Of a DNA stretch of 64,000 bases, positions 31,249-43,200 are shown one piece after another; within the stretch, counting starts at the first letter, position 1, and each line of letters opens with the position of its first letter. This DNA is from Shewanella polaris (lineage in GTDB: Bacteria > Pseudomonadota > Gammaproteobacteria > Enterobacterales > Shewanellaceae). The stretch spans positions 992,001-1,056,000 of the forward strand of contig NZ_CP041036.1 of the NCBI RefSeq assembly GCF_006385555.1, given 5' to 3'. The notes beneath the pieces were generated by a model, which did not search any database, had not been told where the DNA came from, and saw nothing but the letters and a program-made list of their open reading frames with translations. The position numbers were made by a program, and so were the translations under genes.

Positions 31249-32289
31249 ATGATAAAAGGGGTTGGTGAGTCACTCAACGTTATGCGCCAAAGCCAAAGCT
31301 TAGCGCCGAGTAGTGCGGCTGGTATTGCCAGTCAGCCTCAGATTCTAGAAAAACAAAGGTCTATTCCTAAACACAGATTAGACAGTTACCAACGTTGGGC
31401 TAAAACAACCGCAGAGCAGCACAGCATCAGTGCTTCGCAAGTTGCTTTACAATCGTTGAATCAAGCTAAGCAACTTTTACAACAATTAGGTCGAGTGTTG
31501 CAGCATGTGCAACGACAAGACAACGGAGGCCGGGAAGACCCCCGTCATTCCTTGTTAGATAATGCAGAAGCGTTAAGACAACAGATAATAGCCTTAGAAC
31601 CAAGATATCAAGGTATTCAATTACTCGACCATCACTTTAATCTGCTGTCATCGACGTCTAACTCAGCAAGTCATGCTTTTGTATTTAAATCAGTGGACTT
31701 AATTGCGACCAAAGAGCACGCTGAAAAAATTCACTTACAACTTGGGCGCCAAAGCCGCATAGTGTATTTACCTGCAGGATATAGTCGAGAATCTTTGTTA
31801 CAACTGATTACCCCAATCTTTAAAAGCCTTGATATTAACTTAGAGTGGACTGGTCAGGAGCTGATCTATAAAGCCAGCACTCAAGCTTGGTTGGCAGTAC
31901 AAGCTGGTGTGCTTATGATGGGAGAAGGGCAACGTTTACCTGCTGGAGAGTTGAGGCAAATCCGCATAGAACCAAGGTATCACTGGCAAGACCCAAGGGA
32001 ATGGGATCTCGTTGAACAAGGACAACTAAAAGCCAGCCAAGCCAAAATTGCTAAAACGCAACAAAAAATTAGCCAACAAACAGCTGAAATTGAGGCTGTG
32101 CATCAATTATTACTTGATAGAGTAAAAGGCGCTAAAGTTGTAAATTCCAATGAGTTAGGTAATGAAGCCAAATCGGCGCTGAATTCATTATATAAATACA
32201 TGAAACCTCATCCTTTTAGCTATCAAATTGCTTCCCTAATGGCCCAAGGTAATACAAACAGAGATCAAGTTGGTGCCCTGCTGGGGTAA
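31249..32289 (+). CDS. lafW: Putative lateral hook-associated protein LafW
   Basis: 346 residues. Not a standard flagellar protein, but its place between flgL and the flagellin is that of lafW in lateral (Flag-2) clusters, where it is annotated as hook-associated. It is rich in Gln, with helices near residues 55-90 and a coiled coil near 255-285; no signal peptide. It may be a cap or chaperone-like component. The name rests on position rather than visible homology. A strong terminator begins 31 bp after the stop, and the stop codon lies at the first bases of a 2.28-kb repeat. Confidence 0.55.
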   Translation: MIKGVGESLNVMRQSQSLAPSSAAGIASQPQILEKQRSIPKHRLDSYQRWAKTTAEQHSISASQVALQSLNQAKQLLQQLGRVLQHVQRQDNGGREDPRHSLLDNAEALRQQIIALEPRYQGIQLLDHHFNLLSSTSNSASHAFVFKSVDLIATKEHAEKIHLQLGRQSRIVYLPAGYSRESLLQLITPIFKSLDINLEWTGQELIYKASTQAWLAVQAGVLMMGEGQRLPAGELRQIRIEPRYHWQDPREWDLVEQGQLKASQAKIAKTQQKISQQTAEIEAVHQLLLDRVKGAKVVNSNELGNEAKSALNSLYKYMKPHPFSYQIASLMAQGNTNRDQVGALLG

Positions 32290-32319
32290 CCCCCATATAG
32301 AGATGTTATTTCATTCAAT

Positions 32320-32343
32320 AAAAAAGAACTTAGGTTCTTTTTT
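32320..32343 (+). terminator. Terminator after lafW (in repeat copy 1)
   Basis: The perfect 10-bp stem AAAAAAGAAC / GTTCTTTTTT has the loop TTAG, with the T-run built into the right arm. Confidence 0.85.
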
Positions 32344-33525
32344 AAAGACTTTTTTGCTGTCAACTGCTCATCCATAAGTACAATAAATAATTAGAACTTG
32401 TTATATACTCTATAAACCATAGACGAATATTGACAGGTTTCTGGACCTTCAATGCTGCTTAATATGATTTTTACATACAACTGCAAAGTCTAATTTGTGC
32501 CATAAAAAATAAGACATTCCTAGCATCCATGGGGGTCAGATGCAGAGCAACATCTTCTTCATTTCTCTACCTTCAGCATCCATGCTGTCGTATTTTGAAA
32601 ACATCTAACGAAGCATAAAGGACTTTGAAACCCGCCAGAATGGAGTTTCTCAAGTATTCCACTTTTGTGTTGCATCGACTTAAAAAGGGAGCAATCATAT
32701 TTACACCAATGCGCTTTGAATTGTAAAAACTGAGAGACTCTGATCTGACCAGATATTTAATGAGATTGGTATGATTTTCCTAGCAGGACAGAAATCCCGC
32801 TGAATGGCCAGATAATTATTGGAATTAATATAACACATCTACAATAACAGCTTTAGATTTAACTTCTTAAGGTATTGATTTAATTTGTGTTTGTGGTAAT
32901 TGTTGATGGGTGATGCAGTGATAGAAATGAAAGGGCATTTTGCTCCCTCATTAACTTTACCATAGCAATGAAAGGCGGCGTTAGTTTCATTACTCGGATT
33001 GAGTGGGATGATCATATGGTGCAGATACCTAAGAGAATAAAATCTTATGTCGACAACAAAAAGCGAATACAAATCATACTTTGGTATTGCTATAATCTCA
33101 ACACTGTTAGAAATGACTTTTTAAGTTGAAACTTATCGAGATGTAATATCTGAGTTGTAAAATAATTGGATATTGTGTGGACGTGTAATCACATTGTTTA
33201 GAAATGAAATAGATTCAGTTCGTTTAGAATATGGACCGAATATCACTTTATATAAAATTATTGAAGCTATCATCATTCACTTCATTTGGTAATAATCAAA
33301 AGACTTACCAGAACAAATCAAGCGGTTGTTACTGTGTTATTTGCTATAGAGTAAATAAACCCTAATAAAGGCGAACCATATTTTTATCAATCTTAGCTCC
33401 GTTTTTCCTATGAAAGAGTAAAATGGAACTCGTTTAGTACAAACTAATTTTTTTGTCCTTTAAGATGCTATTGTTATGTAGTGTGTTGTTTAGATGGTTT
33501 TAATTTATTGAGCGTTATTGTTTTG

Positions 33526-33547
33526 ACCTCGTTATGAGGTGGTTTTT
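33526..33547 (+). promoter_or_regulatory. Small hairpin plus T-run in the flagellin 5' region (copy 1)
   Basis: ACCTC (33526-33530) and GAGGT (33536-33540) flank GTTAT and are followed by GGTTTTTTG, about 95 bp before the flagellin ATG. It resembles a weak attenuator or a leader stem. The identical element in copy 2 is at about 37030-37051. Confidence 0.35.
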
Positions 33548-33643
33548 TGTCTAACTAATAAATTTTTTTATTTCAGTTTCGTCTGTGAGTGTCGTTTTAA
33601 TACTTTGGATAACAAAAAAACTTATTTTCTTGGAGTAACAATT

Positions 33644-34450
33644 ATGCTTTCAGTACACACAAACTATGCTTCACTTGTTTCACAAGGTGCAGTTAATAAA
33701 AGTAACGACCTATTAACTTCAGCTATGGAACGTTTATCTACAGGTCTTCGTATCAACAGTGCTGCAGATGATGCTGCTGGTCTACAAATTGCTAACCGCA
33801 TGAATGCCAACATCACAGGTATGCAAGCTGCAACCCGTAATATTTCTGATGCAACATCAATGTTACAGACTGCTGATGGTGCGTTAGAAGAATTAACTAC
33901 AATCGCTAACCGTCAAAAAGAATTAGCAACACAAGCTGCCAACGGCGTGAACTCTACAGACGATTTGATTGCATTGGATGCCGAATATCAAGCACTAATT
34001 CTAGAATCTGCGCGTATTACTGATAAAACCACTTATGCTGGTAATAATTTATTTACGTCATTAACAACAGGAACTGGTGTCACCTTCCAAATTGGTGCTG
34101 GTACTACAGAGCAGTTGTCAACACTTCTAGTCGCACCTGCAGCAGTTGGTGGTAATTTATTAACTTCTGCTGCAGCTCTTACAGCAATGGCTGATGTTGA
34201 TACAAATATTGGCGAAGTTGGTACAGCTCGTTCAGTTCTAGGTGCTAGCATTAACCGTTTAGGTCATACATCATCTAACCTTGCTAGTGTAATTGAAAAT
34301 ACTCAAACTGCTGCAGGCCGTATCATGGATACTGATTTCGCAGTTGAATCTGCTAACATGACTCGTAACCAATTGTTAGTTCAAGCGGGTACTTCAATAT
34401 TATCATCAGCTAACCAAAATACTGGTTTAGTGATGGGTCTATTAGGTTAA
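33644..34450 (+). CDS. lafA: Lateral flagellin, copy 1
   Basis: 268 residues from the ATG at 33644 (TTGGAGT 7 nt upstream, N-terminus MLSVHTNYASLVSQGAVNKSN). The frame runs open to 33539 but that stretch is leader. D0/D1 helices are at both ends (RLSTGLRINSAADDAAGLQIANRM; ESANMTRNQLLVQAGTSILSSANQNTGLVMGLLG), with a very short variable domain (~140-185). It polymerises into the lateral filament. The DNA equals copy 2 except for about 20 substitutions and a 6-bp length difference in 34062-34195, plus two silent changes. Confidence 0.95.
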   Translation: MLSVHTNYASLVSQGAVNKSNDLLTSAMERLSTGLRINSAADDAAGLQIANRMNANITGMQAATRNISDATSMLQTADGALEELTTIANRQKELATQAANGVNSTDDLIALDAEYQALILESARITDKTTYAGNNLFTSLTTGTGVTFQIGAGTTEQLSTLLVAPAAVGGNLLTSAAALTAMADVDTNIGEVGTARSVLGASINRLGHTSSNLASVIENTQTAAGRIMDTDFAVESANMTRNQLLVQAGTSILSSANQNTGLVMGLLG

Positions 34451-34482
34451 TTTAACACCAGCCTAACTTTCCGATATTGAAC

Positions 34483-34507
34483 AAAAAGGACCTCAGGGTC
34501 CTTTTTT
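34483..34507 (+). terminator. Terminator of flagellin copy 1
   Basis: AAAAAGGACC-TCAG-GGTCCTTTTTT, a classic rho-independent structure 33 bp after the stop. Confidence 0.9.
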
Positions 34508-34565
34508 ATTGTCTTGCAATTATAAGTCTTACAACTGTTATAGAACTCATAATATGAAGATAATC

Positions 34566-35788
34566 ACGGCAAGATCATTATAAATTAAACTTTTTGAATA
34601 ACTCCTGATCAGATCAAGGAATAATAGTTTCCTTGGTAAATGACAATGAGCACTACTTTTCTGACACATTTTAATTCAATTACAGATCCTCGTATTGAAC
34701 GTTGTAAAAAACATCAACTCATCGATATTCTTCTACTCGCTATCTGTGCAGTACTCTCTGGGGCCGAGGGGTGGGAGGATATTGAGGACTTTGGTCACCT
34801 TAAGCTTGATTGGCTAAAAAAATACGGTACTTTCCCAGCAGGTATACCAAAGCATGACACCATCGCCCGTGTTATTTGTCGATTAAAATCAAATGAAATA
34901 GAAAAAGCCTTTCAGTCTTGGATTTCATCTCTGATAGAAACGACAGGCGCTGATATTATTGCCATTGATGGAAAGACTGCACGACGCTCATTTACCACAC
35001 AAGACCGAAAAACGGCATTACATACCGTGAGTGCATGGAGTTGCCAGCACCAATTAGTGCTAGGGCAAACCGCTGTTGATAATAAAACCAATGAAATAAC
35101 GGCAATACCTGAGTTACTCGCGATGTTAGATATTGAAAACAGCATCATTACGCTTGATGCAATGGGATGCCAGCAAAGCATTGCAAAACAAATCGTCAAA
35201 CAAAAAGCTGATTATATTTTCGCACTCAAAGGTAATCACTCAGGCATGCAGGATGAATTAGAAGCTTGGTGGCATAAAAGTCAACGAGAAGGTTTTGATG
35301 AAAATAACATGGATGAGCACATTGAAATAACCGCTGGACATGGACGTATTGAAACAAGAGCTTGCCAACAGTTATTGATAAACAAAGACTGGCTCGCTAA
35401 ACCTTTCAGATGGTCAGGCTTGCAGAGTGTTATTAAGGTTACATCGCAAGTTCATGATAAATCAACGGGTGCAAATACGATAGAAACACGTTGGTATATC
35501 AGTTCATTAGGCCTAAATGCAGCGCAAGCGCTCAATGCAGTACGAAGTCATTGGCAGGTTGAAAGTATGCATTGGATGTTAGATATGACTTTCAGAGAAG
35601 ATGAATCGAGAATACGGAAACAACAAGGCCACTGGTATTTAATGTGATGCGGAAAATTGCCATGGCTTTACTTAAACGAGATGATACAAAATCAGCTAGC
35701 ATCGCGAGGAAAAAGAAAATGGCAGGGTTAGACGATGATTATCGCTCAACCCTGTTGGAGTCTGGAATTAAAATACGCTAGTCGTGGA
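34566..35788 (+). mobile_element. Remnant of an ISAs1-family insertion sequence between the flagellin repeats
   Basis: About 1.2 kb lying exactly between the two copies of the flagellin repeat. It carries an ISAs1-type transposase gene with one frameshift. I could not identify terminal inverted repeats or a target duplication. The right flank runs straight from the transposase stop into the second repeat after 7 bp, so the right end of the element appears to be lost. Confidence 0.7.
34640..35781 (+). pseudogene. ISAs1-family transposase, frameshifted
   Basis: The first 335 codons encode a clear ISAs1/H-repeat DDE transposase (ITDPRIERCKKHQLIDILLLAICAVLSGAEGWEDIEDFG; DIIAIDGKTARRSF; ADYIFALKGNHSGMQDEL; HWQVESMHWMLDMTFREDESRIRK). 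A stop at 35645-35647 cuts it short. The C-terminal continuation (VMRKIAMALLKRDDTKSASI...) reads on from about 35632 in another frame to a TAG at 35779-35781. One base is missing near 35625-35640. No slippery heptamer is seen, so this is decay or a sequencing error rather than programmed frameshifting. Confidence 0.85.
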
Positions 35789-35822
35789 GTAACCCCCATA
35801 TAGAGATGTTATTTCATTCAGT

Positions 35823-35846
35823 AAAAAAGAACTTAGGTTCTTTTTT
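35823..35846 (+). terminator. Duplicated lafW-type terminator (repeat copy 2)
   Basis: Same AAAAAAGAAC / GTTCTTTTTT stem as at 32320-32343, now 41 bp after the transposase stop. Confidence 0.8.
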
Positions 35847-37147
35847 AAAGACTTTTTTGCTGTCAACTGCTCATCCATAAGTACAATAAATAATTAGAAC
35901 TTGTTATATACTCTATAAACCATAGACGAATATTGACAGGTTTCTGGACCTTCAATGCTGCTTAATATGATTTTTACATACAACTGCAAAGTCTAATTTG
36001 TGCCATAAAAAATAAGACATTCCTAGCATCCATGGGGGTCAGATGCAGAGCAACATCTTCTTCATTTCTCTACCTTCAGCATCCATGCTGTCGTATTTTG
36101 AAAACATCTAACGAAGCATAAAGGACTTTGAAACCCGCCAGAATGGAGTTTCTCAAGTATTCCACTTTTGTGTTGCATCGACTTAAAAAGGGAGCAATCA
36201 TATTTACACCAATGCGCTTTGAATTGTAAAAACTGAGAGACTCTGATCTGACCAGATATTTAATGAGATTGGTATGATTTTCCTAGCAGGACAGAAATCC
36301 CGCTGAATGGCCAGATAATTATTGGAATTAATATAACACATCTACAATAACAGCTTTAGATTTAACTTCTTAAGGTATTGATTTAATTTGTGTTTGTGGT
36401 AATTGTTGATGGGTGATGCAGTGATAGAAATGAAAGGGCATTTTGCTCCCTCATTAACTTTACCATAGCAATGAAAGGCGGCGTTAGTTTCATTACTCGG
36501 ATTGAGTGGGATGATCATATGGTGCAGATACCTAAGAGAATAAAATCTTATGTCGACAACAAAAAGCGAATACAAATCATACTTTGGTATTGCTATAATC
36601 TCAACACTGTTAGAAATGACTTTTTAAGTTGAAACTTATCGAGATGTAATATCTGAGTTGTAAAATAATTGGATATTGTGTGGACGTGTAATCACATTGT
36701 TTAGAAATGAAATAGATTCAGTTCGTTTAGAATATGGACCGAATATCACTTTATATAAAATTATTGAAGCTATCATCATTCACTTCATTTGGTAATAATC
36801 AAAAGACTTACCAGAACAAATCAAGCGGTTGTTACTGTGTTATTTGCTATAGAGTAAATAAACCCTAATAAAGGCGAACCATATTTTTATCAATCTTAGC
36901 TCCGTTTTTCCTATGAAAGAGTAAAATGGAACTCGTTTAGTACAAACTAATTTTTTTGTCCTTTAAGATGCTATTGTTATGTAGTGTGTTGTTTTAGTTG
37001 GTTTTAATTTATTGAGCGTTATTGTTTTGACCTCGTTATGAGGTGGTTTTTTGTCTAACTAATAAATTTTTTTATTTCAGTTTCGTCTGTGAGTGTCGTT
37101 TTAATACTTTGGATAACAAAAAAACTTATTTTCTTGGAGTAACAATT

Positions 37148-37948
37148 ATGCTTTCAGTACACACAAACTATGCTTCACTTGTTTCACAAGGTGCAGTTAA
37201 TAAAAGTAACGACCTATTAACTTCAGCTATGGAACGTTTATCTACAGGTCTTCGTATCAACAGTGCTGCAGATGATGCTGCTGGTCTACAAATTGCTAAC
37301 CGCATGAATGCCAACATCACAGGTATGCAAGCTGCAACCCGTAATATTTCTGATGCAACATCAATGTTACAGACTGCTGATGGTGCGTTAGAAGAATTAA
37401 CTACAATCGCTAACCGTCAAAAAGAATTAGCAACACAAGCTGCCAACGGCGTGAACTCTACAGACGATTTGATTGCATTGGATGCCGAATATCAAGCACT
37501 AATTCTAGAATCTGCACGTATTACTGATAAAACCACTTATGCTGGTAATAACTTATTTACGTCATTAACAGCTGGTACCACCTTCCAAATTGGTGCTGGT
37601 ACTACAGAGCAGTTGACAACAACTATAACTGCACCAACAGCAGTTGCTGGTGATTTACTAAGTTCTGCTAATGCTCTTACAGCAATGGCTGCTGTTGATA
37701 CAAATATTGGCGAAGTTGGTACAGCTCGTTCAGTTCTAGGTGCTAGCATTAACCGTTTAGGTCATACATCATCTAACCTTGCTAGTGTAATTGAAAATAC
37801 TCAAACTGCTGCAGGCCGTATCATGGATACTGATTTCGCAGTTGAATCTGCTAACATGACTCGTAACCAATTGTTAGTTCAAGCGGGTACTTCAATATTA
37901 TCATCAGCTAACCAAAATACTGGTTTAGTGATGGGTCTATTAGGTTAA
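37148..37948 (+). CDS. lafA2: Lateral flagellin, copy 2
   Basis: 266 residues from the ATG at 37148. It has the same ribosome binding site, N-terminal ~137 residues and C-terminal ~80 residues as copy 1. The central stretch (about residues 139-182) differs: TTGTGV becomes TAGT, and S, L, L, V, A, G, N, T, A, D become T, T, I, T, T, A, D, S, N, A at successive sites. Both genes look intact and expressed from identical upstream DNA, so a mixed-flagellin filament is likely. Confidence 0.95.
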   Translation: MLSVHTNYASLVSQGAVNKSNDLLTSAMERLSTGLRINSAADDAAGLQIANRMNANITGMQAATRNISDATSMLQTADGALEELTTIANRQKELATQAANGVNSTDDLIALDAEYQALILESARITDKTTYAGNNLFTSLTAGTTFQIGAGTTEQLTTTITAPTAVAGDLLSSANALTAMAAVDTNIGEVGTARSVLGASINRLGHTSSNLASVIENTQTAAGRIMDTDFAVESANMTRNQLLVQAGTSILSSANQNTGLVMGLLG

Positions 37949-37980
37949 TTTAACACCAGCCTAACTTTCCGATATTGAAC

Positions 37981-38006
37981 AAAAAGGACCTCAGGGTCCT
38001 TTTTTA
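37981..38006 (+). terminator. Terminator of flagellin copy 2
   Basis: Identical to the copy 1 terminator: AAAAAGGACC-TCAG-GGTCCT followed by T-run. Confidence 0.9.
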
Positions 38007-38153
38007 TTGTCTTGCAATTACAAGTCTTACAACTGTTATAGAACTCATAATATGAAGATAATCTGATTGAGTTTAATAAAATAGGATTTATTTCAGTTAT
38101 GGCGCTTAAGGGTCGTCTTATATTAAATAATGGGTCTACTCATGTTGATGAAA

Positions 38154-38175
38154 GAGGAAGTAAATCTTCCTTTTT
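38154..38175 (+). terminator. Terminator-like hairpin between flagellin copy 2 and fliD
   Basis: AGGAAG-TAAAT-CTTCCT followed by TTTTG. It lies inside a 42-codon open frame (38099-38227) that has no ribosome binding site. It may be a second terminator protecting the fliD promoter from read-through. Confidence 0.5.
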
Positions 38176-38253
38176 GTTTGCTGAAACGGAAATGACAATA
38201 GCTTTAAACGTTAAGAAAACAAATTAAGCCTTTAATAAACAATTAGATAAATG

Positions 38254-38330: not shown

Positions 38331-39677
38331 ATGATATCAGGTATGAGTTCGGCGCAATTTGCCCAACAATTAATTTCTGCCGATCGTGCAGGTAAAGATT
38401 ATTATTATCAAAATAAGCTTTCTACTCAGAATACCCAACTTGATGCTTATGGGTTATTAGAAACGGCTATGAAGCAGCTCTCAACTAAGATGAGTAATAT
38501 TGACTCTGATGCTTTTAGTAATAAAAAGGCTGAAATTAATAATGATTTTGCTAATGTGACAGTAACAGCTGCTGCTCCTAGTGGGAACTATGACTTGATT
38601 GTTACTCAGATGGCTCAATCTCATCAATTAACTAAAACCTATGACAGTGAAAACACGTTAATACCTGCTGTAGGGCTTTTTAGTATCCAACTTGGAAGTG
38701 ATCCAGCAGACAAACTCACTATTGACTTAGCTACAATTAATGGCGGTGCAGACATCACTGTTAGCCAATTAAGAGATTTAATTAATAAGGATGTCTCTAA
38801 TCCAGGAATGCAAGCATCTTTAATTCGCACCGGCGGTAAAGTAGAGTTAATGTTGTCGTCTAATAATACCGGGACTAGCAATAATCTAGCTGTGACTTTA
38901 GATGGTACCGATTTGGGGATGACTCAACGACGTGCCGCTCAAGATGCTGAATTAACCTTGAACGGTATTAGTATTACAAATAGTAGCAACTATCTTGATA
39001 ACGTCATTGATGGTGTGAGTTTGGAGCTGGTTAAAGTCCATAGTGTTGGAGAGTCTAGCCAAATAAAAGTTGAAGATGACAGCGAGGCTACTACTAGTGC
39101 GGTTAATGATTTCGTTAATGATTTTAATACATTACTTACTCAAATTAATCAATTAAGTCGCTCTATGGGCAGTACGCTAGTAGATTCTACTGATAGTGAT
39201 GATGAAGACTCCGTTACTGTGTCTAATAGCCAGTTAGGTGTTCTTAACGGAGACTCATCGGTAAGATTATTACAATCTCGTCTACAAGATGTAGTGTTTG
39301 CAATAGCCCCTAATGGTATGCGTCTTAGTGATATTGGTATAGAAATGGGCAGAGACGGCCTATTAAAAATGGATGATACAAAGTTTGAAACTGCATTGAA
39401 GGCTGATAGTGCTAAGGTTCAGGCTATGTTCAGCGATACAAACAGTTATATCGACAAGATTGATGCAGTACTAAAACCCTACACTGCGTTTGATGGTTTA
39501 TTATCGATGAAAAAGCAAACTCTTGATGATCAAATAAATCGTATTCAAGACAGTATGGAACAATATGATTACCAAATGGATTTGAAGTATGGTGTGTATT
39601 TGGCTCAATTTACTGCAATGGAAGCCACCATTAATCAATTAAGTGCTGCCAGTAGCTTATTTTCCACAAATGAATAG
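38331..39677 (+). CDS. fliD: Lateral filament cap protein FliD (LafB)
   Basis: 448 residues. The N-terminal coiled region is SGMSSAQFAQQLISADRAGKDYYYQNKLSTQNTQLDAYG-like. FliD_C motifs include LRDLINKDVSNPGMQASLIRTG and the terminal helix TLDDQINRIQDSMEQYDYQMDLKYGVYLAQFTAMEATINQL. It caps the growing filament. AAAGGAG precedes the ATG. First gene of the late operon. Confidence 0.93.
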   Translation: MISGMSSAQFAQQLISADRAGKDYYYQNKLSTQNTQLDAYGLLETAMKQLSTKMSNIDSDAFSNKKAEINNDFANVTVTAAAPSGNYDLIVTQMAQSHQLTKTYDSENTLIPAVGLFSIQLGSDPADKLTIDLATINGGADITVSQLRDLINKDVSNPGMQASLIRTGGKVELMLSSNNTGTSNNLAVTLDGTDLGMTQRRAAQDAELTLNGISITNSSNYLDNVIDGVSLELVKVHSVGESSQIKVEDDSEATTSAVNDFVNDFNTLLTQINQLSRSMGSTLVDSTDSDDEDSVTVSNSQLGVLNGDSSVRLLQSRLQDVVFAIAPNGMRLSDIGIEMGRDGLLKMDDTKFETALKADSAKVQAMFSDTNSYIDKIDAVLKPYTAFDGLLSMKKQTLDDQINRIQDSMEQYDYQMDLKYGVYLAQFTAMEATINQLSAASSLFSTNE

Positions 39678-42486: not shown

Positions 42487-43200
42487 ATGAGTTGTGATGG
42501 TCAATTAGCCTATCAAGCTGTTAGCGATGAGCCAGTACTACAGCGTTTGTCCGAAGAGCAGCTTATTGTGCAATACCTTCCTTTGGTTAAGCGAGCAGTA
42601 CTGCAGCTGCGGAGTCATTGTGGGGCTATGTTATCCCTAGAGGACATGGAACAAATAGGTATGATGGCACTAATCGAATCATCTCGACGTTACCCTGGTG
42701 AGTTTGATAACGGCTTTATCTCTTTTGCTGGACAGAGAATCCGTGGTGCTATTTTAGATGAATTAAGACGCCAAGATTGGCGTCCAAGACCTGTGAGGCA
42801 ACAAGCTCATAAACTTAATGATAAGGTACGAGAACTTACTCGTGCGTTTGGTCGTGAACCTACAGATAGTGAAGTGGCGCAAGGGTTAGATTTGTCTCAA
42901 GAAGATTATCGACAAAGTTTGTATGCCACTCAAGCTGAATCGATGAAAAGTTTAGATGATATGTTAAGCATAGGTGAACAACCTGCAGATAAAAACAATG
43001 AAGTTGAGCGTTTTTTGCTCAAAAAAACATTAATTAAAGCAATGACAAAATTAAATGAAAGAGAACAGCTAATTCTGTCGCTTTACTATAATCATGAACT
43101 TAATTTAAAAGAAATCGCCCTAACGCTTGGACTCACTGAGACACGTATTTGCCAGTTACATAAACTTGCAGTTGCTAGATTAGAGAGCTTATTACAGTAA
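42487..43200 (+). CDS. lafS: Lateral flagellar sigma-28 factor LafS (FliA)
   Basis: 237 residues. Region 2 (LEDMEQIGMMALIESSRRYPGEFDNGFISFAGQRIRGAILDELRRQDWRPRPVR), region 3 (FGREPTDSEVAQGLDLS) and region 4 HTH (LNLKEIALTLGLTETRICQLHKLAVARL) are intact. It directs class 3 genes such as flagellin and is held by FlgM. It lies between fliL and the stator genes. Confidence 0.95.
   Translation: MSCDGQLAYQAVSDEPVLQRLSEEQLIVQYLPLVKRAVLQLRSHCGAMLSLEDMEQIGMMALIESSRRYPGEFDNGFISFAGQRIRGAILDELRRQDWRPRPVRQQAHKLNDKVRELTRAFGREPTDSEVAQGLDLSQEDYRQSLYATQAESMKSLDDMLSIGEQPADKNNEVERFLLKKTLIKAMTKLNEREQLILSLYYNHELNLKEIALTLGLTETRICQLHKLAVARLESLLQ

What the first reader, a model, noticed from the sequence alone, without database searches (positions are those of the whole stretch)
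32286..38063. Two lateral flagellin genes in a 2.28-kb near-identical duplication, diverged only in the surface-exposed centre
The two repeat copies differ by only about three or four bases in roughly 2.1 kb, including non-coding DNA. Within 34062-34195, however, the flagellins carry about 20 substitutions and a 6-bp length change. Of 12 differing codons between 34118 and 34195, 10 change the residue. The central part of flagellin faces outward. The pattern fits either diversifying selection or gene conversion that keeps the flanks identical while importing a variable cassette. It could produce phase or antigenic-like variation, or phage-receptor escape.
Basis: seen in the sequence. Interest (0 to 1): 0.8.

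Follow-up and report, generated by a model that had tools for sequence, protein, structure and literature searches.

The report
IS-separated lateral flagellin gene duplication
A Shewanella genome carries its lateral flagellin gene twice, in two nearly identical copies on either side of a mobile element, and only the outward-facing middle of the protein differs between the copies; it looks like a natural example of known kinds of duplication and flagellin recombination, not a new switching system.

Summary
Two direct copies (32284-34564 and 35787-38062) each hold a complete lateral flagellin gene with the same promoter-like site. Of 28 difference events between them, 21 lie in 134 bp of the gene centre. 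The locus is a Dup-IS-Dup tandem duplication, an architecture described in laboratory-evolved Pseudomonas.

The two closest outgroups found have one lafA each, with a centre like copy B. Copy A carries the derived centre, which shares a run of residues with an S. frigidimarina flagellin. I conclude that an IS-linked duplication was combined with replacement, or fast divergence, of a ~183-bp tract in copy A. Several other Shewanella flagellin arrays show similar ends and divergent centres. Centre dN/dS is about 2 but not significantly above 1. No invertible or programmed switch was found; both genes look expressible. Recombination between the copies could delete one and leave either centre (inference). 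Function (phage escape, glycosylation, filament mechanics) is untested.

The parts
31249..32289 (+). ORF between flgL and the duplication, 346 aa, of the lateral cluster (no Pfam match; a similar ORF lies at the same place in SR44-3). The duplication begins in its last codon and stop
32284..34564 (+). Duplicated unit X, copy A (2,281 bp): about 1.35 kb without a listed gene, lafA1, terminator-like palindrome
33571..33599 (+). Sigma-28-type promoter-like site of copy A, TTTCAGTTT-N11-GTCGTTTTA; identical in copy B (37075-37103) and found, at up to 2 mismatches per half, upstream of lafA in 10 of 12 relatives. A scan with the recalled E. coli FliA consensus at up to 3 mismatches per half found no site in either copy
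33644..34450 (+). lafA1, lateral flagellin, 268 aa (Flagellin_N, Flagellin_C), derived centre
34012..34194 (+). Tract in copy A with 22 substitutions and the 6-bp extra; copy B matches the outgroup SR44-3 at 15 of the 22, A at 3, neither at 4. Likely replaced tract
34565..35786 (+). ISAs1-family insertion sequence, full length 1,222 bp, imperfect tips CACGGCAAG / CTAGTCGTG, no target-site duplication (TGAAGATAAT left, GAGTAACCCC right); 98.5% to a copy on an Alteromonas stellipolaris plasmid
34640..35647 (+). ISAs1 transposase (DDE_Tnp_1), frame broken near the C-terminal end compared with a longer relative
35787..38062 (+). Duplicated unit X, copy B (2,276 bp)
37148..37948 (+). lafA2, lateral flagellin, 266 aa, ancestral-type centre (residues 139-182 identical in protein P0002 from a short ENA contig)
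38331..39677 (+). fliD (filament cap) of the lateral cluster, directly downstream of copy B
42487..43200 (+). FliA-family sigma factor of the lateral cluster, probable user of both lafA promoters (inference)

Best explanation
A 2.28-kb unit carrying the single lateral flagellin gene was duplicated in tandem, with an ISAs1-family element placed exactly at the new joint (Dup-IS-Dup). The flagellin centre of the upstream copy (about 34012-34194) was, then or in the same event, replaced by homologous recombination with a diverged flagellin allele from the Shewanella pool; near-identical flanks provide the homology. Copy B kept the old centre. Both genes are complete, carry the same sigma-28-type upstream site, and should supply two subunits that differ only near the filament surface. 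Shown: the duplication, the IS and its missing target duplication, the direction of most changes, and similar ends with divergent centres in relatives. Inferred: import rather than mutation, a recent date (few flank differences), expression of both genes, and that recombination between the copies can delete the IS and one copy, leaving either centre. Unknown: the benefit.
For: Repeat and difference map. IS ends and absence of TSD, against 10-bp TSDs in the three relatives examined. The only full-length copy found in this genome, so ordinary unequal crossing-over between two resident copies is not visible. B matches SR44-3 at 15 of 22 differing bases, A at 3, neither at 4. Synonymous divergence is also higher in the centre than in the flanks (3.5/37 vs 2/164, p 0.01-0.04 with rounded counts), which selection on protein sequence alone does not predict. 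A shares 7 of 12 A-specific residues with S. frigidimarina P0121, the most among 120 relatives scored (next best 5), in the run VAP.AVGGNLLT.AAA.TAM.DVDTNI. Similar ends with divergent centres elsewhere: three S. frigidimarina flagellins on one contig differ at 0-1/118 N-terminal, 0/84 C-terminal and 15-24/98-104 central residues; in G002/G099 the ends group by genome and the centres by cassette.
Against: No nucleotide donor was found: the closest DNA to the A centre in 129 genus genomes is copy B itself at 82%, and the protein search with the A centre returned only three proteins, itself and two at 77% and 71% (that search reaches only proteins sharing short exact words). Centre dS is only 0.10, far below the 1.1 between B and SR44-3, so any donor was close, and mutation under selection could give the same counts. 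P0121 is a partial protein and matches B, not A, at 3 of the 12 positions. Tree supports behind the G002/G099 pattern are modest (54, 75, 68, 95), and one C-terminal comparison goes the other way (0.103 between genomes vs 0.123-0.135 within G002).
Confidence: 0.6

Rival explanations
1. A specific one-step route, contained in the best explanation: a circle carrying X plus the IS, from a conspecific donor with another lafA allele, integrated into the recipient's X by a single crossover upstream of the centre. That gives X(recipient-donor)-IS-X(donor-recipient), with no IS outside and no TSD, and predicts the foreign centre in the upstream copy.
For: Explains the exact abutment of the IS on both copies, the missing TSD, intact outer joints, the derived centre in A rather than B, and the few scattered flank differences. 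Circular IS-plus-segment units are described for IS26 (listing and start of abstract only, PMC11102541).
Against: Circle formation by ISAs1 elements is not shown here; no donor strain is known; the scattered flank differences could not be polarised.
Confidence: 0.2
2. The duplication came first; the centre of copy A then diverged by point mutation under diversifying selection, while gene conversion kept the flanks identical.
For: Centre dN 0.198 vs dS 0.10, against a B-SR44-3 centre ratio of about 0.23; the nearest DNA to the A centre is B.
Against: dN over dS is not significantly above 1; adjacent multi-base codon changes and a 6-bp length change; A-specific residues shared with S. frigidimarina; raised synonymous divergence in the centre.
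Confidence: 0.15
3. The pair is a dedicated phase or antigenic switch.
For: Two near-identical direct copies can recombine; the surface segment differs.
Against: The longest inverted-repeat pairs in 33300-38200 were 24-26 nt at 77-83% complementarity, one of them the two terminator palindromes; identical upstream sites on both genes; 42 of the 50 genus genomes with LafA have one match only. No search for a recombinase gene was made.
Confidence: 0.03
4. Assembly artefact: one gene duplicated in the assembly.
For: Reads could not be inspected.
Against: Single 4.65-Mb contig; the copies show 28 difference events and are separated by a complete IS with exact tips. P0002, from another record, carries the B centre.
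Confidence: 0.02

Closest known systems
Dup1-IS481-Dup2 in Pseudomonas fluorescens SBW25 (Ngan et al. 2024, PMC11708052; abstract and passages seen)
   Same: Two direct copies separated by one IS at the joint, no target-site duplication, outer joints intact.
   Different: There a 60-kb unit arose in laboratory evolution and was readily lost, and the IS was IS481. Here the unit is 2.28 kb, the element is ISAs1-family, in a genome not known to be laboratory-evolved, and one copy has since diverged or been replaced in part.
Campylobacter flaA/flaB recombination (Meinersmann and Hiett 2000, Harrington 1997, as cited in PMC5126078; passages of that paper seen; the cited papers not seen)
   Same: Tandem flagellin genes that recombine, with differences at glycosylation positions; proposed links to immune and phage escape.
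   Different: Campylobacter flaA and flaB have different promoters (sigma-28 and sigma-54). Here both upstream sites are identical and an IS lies between. In that paper no flaA-flaB recombination was found in phage-escape mutants.
Concertedly evolving fla tandem pair in Alteromonadales (PMC6053082; passages seen)
   Same: Tandem flagellin paralogs in the same order, homogenised within genomes.
   Different: That survey looked at concerted evolution over the whole gene; here the centres escape it. Shewanella is not named in its main text.
Shewanella putrefaciens FlaA/FlaB (PMC6299084; passages seen)
   Same: Two flagellins of about 270 aa that differ mostly in the outward variable region.
   Different: A polar system, an 86% identical pair; here the lateral system, 95% identical with ends identical in protein sequence.
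lafA of S. piezotolerans WP3 (PMC5178100; passages seen)
   Same: Lateral flagellin of similar size; the WP3 flagellin P0044 is 71% identical.
   Different: One lateral flagellin gene is named there.

Membership tests
Lateral flagellin (LafA) | Flagellin_N and Flagellin_C domains | tested here: met
   Both copies score over the cut-offs
Lateral flagellin (LafA) | Lies in a second flagellar cluster with its own sigma factor and motor genes, apart from the polar one | tested here: met
   FliF/G/H/I-like, FlgA/N/E, FliD, FliS, FliA, MotA and LafU-like genes around it (some under NCBIfam cut-offs); three further loci with a Flagellin_N match lie together at 3.18 Mb
ISAs1-family insertion sequence | DDE_Tnp_1 transposase with DDE_Tnp_1_assoc domain; relatives annotated ISAs1 | tested here: met
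ISAs1-family insertion sequence | Target-site duplication of about 10 bp | tested here: not met
   Three of three relatives examined have 10-bp TSDs; this copy has none, which fits a rearrangement at the IS
Dup-IS-Dup duplication | Direct copies abut both IS tips, no TSD, outer joints without IS | tested here: met
Dup-IS-Dup duplication | Instability with clean loss of IS and one copy | not testable with these tools
   Needs culture or reads
Partial concerted evolution of flagellin paralogs | Ends more alike within a genome than between genomes, centres the reverse | tested here: inconclusive
   G002/G099: N-end 0.056-0.110 within vs 0.124-0.130 between cassette partners, centre 0.306-0.360 vs 0.181-0.185; C-end mixed (0.083-0.135 within, 0.139-0.167 partners, but 0.103 for one non-partner pair); supports 54-95
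Phase-variable flagellin switch (Salmonella Hin type, defining feature recalled) | Invertible promoter segment with flanking inverted repeats and recombinase | tested here: not met
   No such repeats in 33300-38200 and identical upstream sites; recombinase genes not searched

The most novel reading that the evidence does not exclude
Shewanella lateral flagellin loci act as a recombinational diversification zone: tandem copies arise, here by an IS-joint duplication, their ends stay interchangeable, and outward centres are exchanged between copies, strains and species, so that cells carry and periodically fix alternative filament surfaces. Dup-IS-Dup would be a transient two-allele state that collapses to either centre.
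Probability: 0.25. Interest if true: 0.6.

Novelty: new member of a known kind. Interest (0 to 1): 0.42.

Why it matters
It is a natural example of a Dup-IS-Dup joint, which the laboratory report calls not readily explained, in a genome where the sequences on both sides can still be read. It also gives a concrete case for asking why many bacteria keep several flagellin genes: here the paralogs differ in protein sequence only where the filament meets the outside.

Tried and rejected
Rejected: an ancient paralog pair (the two closest outgroups have one lafA each). Rejected: copying of the A centre from another flagellin in the same genome (only copy B matches the A centre DNA there). Rejected: a known RNA element in the 1.35-kb part without a gene (no Rfam match at gathering thresholds; it does hold a roughly 225-bp repeat common in Shewanella). 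Rejected: invertible segment. The microhomology idea for the right IS joint stays open: the first 10 bp after the IS match the TSD of the nearest relative at 8 of 10 positions (33 of 63,990 places in the window do so), but the native left end of X already matches at 7 of 10.

Led nowhere: a nucleotide donor for the A centre; strain-level data (the genome sets held one genome per species); papers on lateral flagellin duplications in Shewanella (none seen among 15 of 34 papers listed and 10 of 119) or on mosaic flagellin centres in Shewanella (15 of 43, 12 of 30, 1 of 1 and 7 of 7 listed), or on ISAs1 duplications (10 of 19 listed).

Results against the pattern: I compared 13 same-contig flagellin pairs, all the equal-contig-length sets I saw among the 120 proteins listed of 943, plus this window's pair. 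Same contig is inferred from equal contig length. The centre was the most divergent part in 12 of 13; in the NFH-SH190041 pair the C-terminal part differed as much (14/84 vs 11/67). In three pairs (two uncultured strains and S. surugensis) the ends were clearly diverged too (11-20/118 N-terminal). One of the pairs in G128 is nearly identical throughout. The gene finder used for searches took only genes with a start motif, so some copies were missed (Ferrimonas marina, S. canadensis, one copy each in G133, G134, G138 and G018). The trees used 11 chosen genes. A scan for the recalled E. coli FliA consensus found no promoter site in either copy; the site is called by its conservation. The translation printed was in a wrong frame and was not used.
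Full report
What is there. The window lies in a single-contig 4,648,537-base genome. Its relatives by lateral flagellin are Shewanella; the genome itself is unnamed. Within a lateral flagellar cluster (FliF, FliG-like, FliH, FliI, FlgN, FlgA, FlgE and other Flg proteins, FliD, FliS, a FliA-type sigma factor, MotA and a LafU-like protein, some of them under NCBIfam cut-offs) two direct copies of a 2.28-kb unit hold lafA1 (33644-34450, 268 aa) and lafA2 (37148-37948, 266 aa). The two copies are 98.56% identical.

The difference map. Of 28 difference events, 21 lie within 34062-34195; random placement never put more than 11 in a window of that size in 20,000 trials. Within 34062-34195 there are 20 substitutions and a 6-bp length change; outside there are seven differences. 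Substitutions alone: 20 of 128 sites against 6 of 2,147, Fisher p 4e-21. Codons 139-184: dN 0.198, dS 0.10; N-terminal part: dN 0, dS 0.02; C-terminal part: both 0. Nonsynonymous changes are concentrated in the centre (p 5e-14) and synonymous ones weakly so (p 0.01-0.04), both with rounded counts. N over S within the centre is not significant (p 0.19-0.59).

What lies between. A complete ISAs1-family element, 34565-35786, fills the space exactly. A copy on an Alteromonas stellipolaris plasmid is 98.5% identical. The three relatives I examined (L113, L114, L115) are bounded by 10-bp target duplications; this copy has TGAAGATAAT on the left and GAGTAACCCC on the right. The left flank is the same as the native right end of X, and the right flank is the native left end of X with one base changed. 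The outer ends of the two copies join the neighbouring flagellar genes without any IS. The transposase frame is broken near its end. No other full-length copy was found in this genome; there are three partial matches, one of them the right end of copy B's own unit.

How such a joint can arise. Recombination between two resident IS copies would leave IS copies outside the duplication; none is there. A paper on P. fluorescens SBW25 (PMC11708052, abstract and passages) describes the same arrangement, Dup1-IS-Dup2 without target duplication, arising in the laboratory and readily lost. Integration of an X-plus-IS circle by one crossover in X would give it in one step and would place a donor's centre in the upstream copy. 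Insertion of an IS into an unfinished break, the view of that paper, or joining at short homologies, is also possible: 8 of 10 bases to the right of the IS equal the target duplication of its nearest relative, though 7 of 10 do so in the native left end of X. I cannot choose between these.

Which centre is old. Of the 22 differing coding bases, SR44-3 agrees with B at 15, with A at 3 and with neither at 4. P0002, a protein from a 1,661-base ENA contig, has the B centre (residues 139-182) residue for residue, with 6 differences elsewhere. So A is the copy that mostly changed. On a tree of centres the A branch is 0.130 and the B branch 0.018.

Where the A centre came from. A search with the A centre alone found only itself, P0002 and a partial S. 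frigidimarina flagellin, P0121. P0121 shares 7 of the 12 A-specific residues and 3 of the B-specific ones; among 120 relatives scored it is the most A-like, the next having 5. No close DNA donor was found in 129 genus genomes. Import from an unsampled close lineage is my preferred reading; rapid divergence within A is the main alternative.

Not an isolated case. Of 129 genus genomes, 50 have a LafA match at E <= 1e-60 and 8 of those 50 have two or more. Of 13 same-contig flagellin pairs (this one and 12 from the homologue list), the centre is the most divergent part in 12. The best parallel is three S. frigidimarina flagellins whose N-terminal 118 residues differ at 0-1 sites and C-terminal 84 at none, while the centres differ at 15-24 sites plus length. 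In G002 and G099 the gene ends are mostly more alike within each genome while the centres pair across genomes, the mark of end homogenisation with retained centres, though with modest support and one C-terminal comparison against it.

Where the centre sits. The AlphaFold2 model of LafA1 (mean pLDDT 83) puts residues 139-184 in a short helix end, a beta hairpin (146-160), a loop (161-174) and the start of the last long helix. The best solved match is the S. oneidensis FlaA filament. Aligned to the longer Vibrio cholerae FlaA (9n8g), the profile breaks at position 163, where about 110 extra residues are inserted; this is where longer flagellins carry outer domains (general knowledge). This supports an exposed position; filament contacts were not modelled.

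How it most likely works. Both genes keep the same promoter-like site (TTTCAGTTT-N11-GTCGTTTTA), found with the same spacing upstream of lafA in 10 of 12 relatives; the recalled E. coli FliA consensus itself was not matched. The DNA is identical between the copies from 33495 to 34011, which covers the site, the gene start and the first part of the coding region, and both copies have the same terminator-like palindrome. So both should be made together and mixed in the filament (inference). The copies share long stretches of identity, so homologous recombination can delete the IS and one copy and leave either centre (inference from the SBW25 case). No switch machinery was found in the stretch examined.

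Verdict. A real and readable event, assembled from known processes: an IS-joint tandem duplication plus flagellin centre replacement or fast divergence. It is a good natural example, not a new class.

Noticed in passing
L009 (own genome, G000:C1 about 3,893,200): A bactofilin gene (PF04519) has a close copy of the lafA-type promoter-like site upstream (77% over 76 nt), and beside it lies a 61-bp ISAs1 left-end remnant. It may belong to the lateral flagellar regulon.
   Followed up: partly
window 32547-32775 and the matching part of copy B: A roughly 225-bp repeat in the gene-free part of X; the 1,251-bp query containing it matched 76 of 129 Shewanella genomes, most listed hits falling in this part. 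Nature unknown; no Rfam match.
   Followed up: partly
P0034 and P0121 (S. frigidimarina): Two partial flagellins, each cut off inside the gene (P0034 lacks the C-terminal end, P0121 the N-terminal end), as would be expected if assemblies break at duplicated lafA copies with identical ends.
   Followed up: no
G128 region L147: Four tandem lateral-type flagellin genes, two of them nearly identical throughout.
   Followed up: no
L113, Alteromonas stellipolaris plasmid pASTE61-200: The ISAs1 transposase there is annotated as 'receptor', apparently a misannotation.
   Followed up: no
window 34912-35199 minus strand: A 95-aa open frame antisense to the transposase; probably chance.
   Followed up: no
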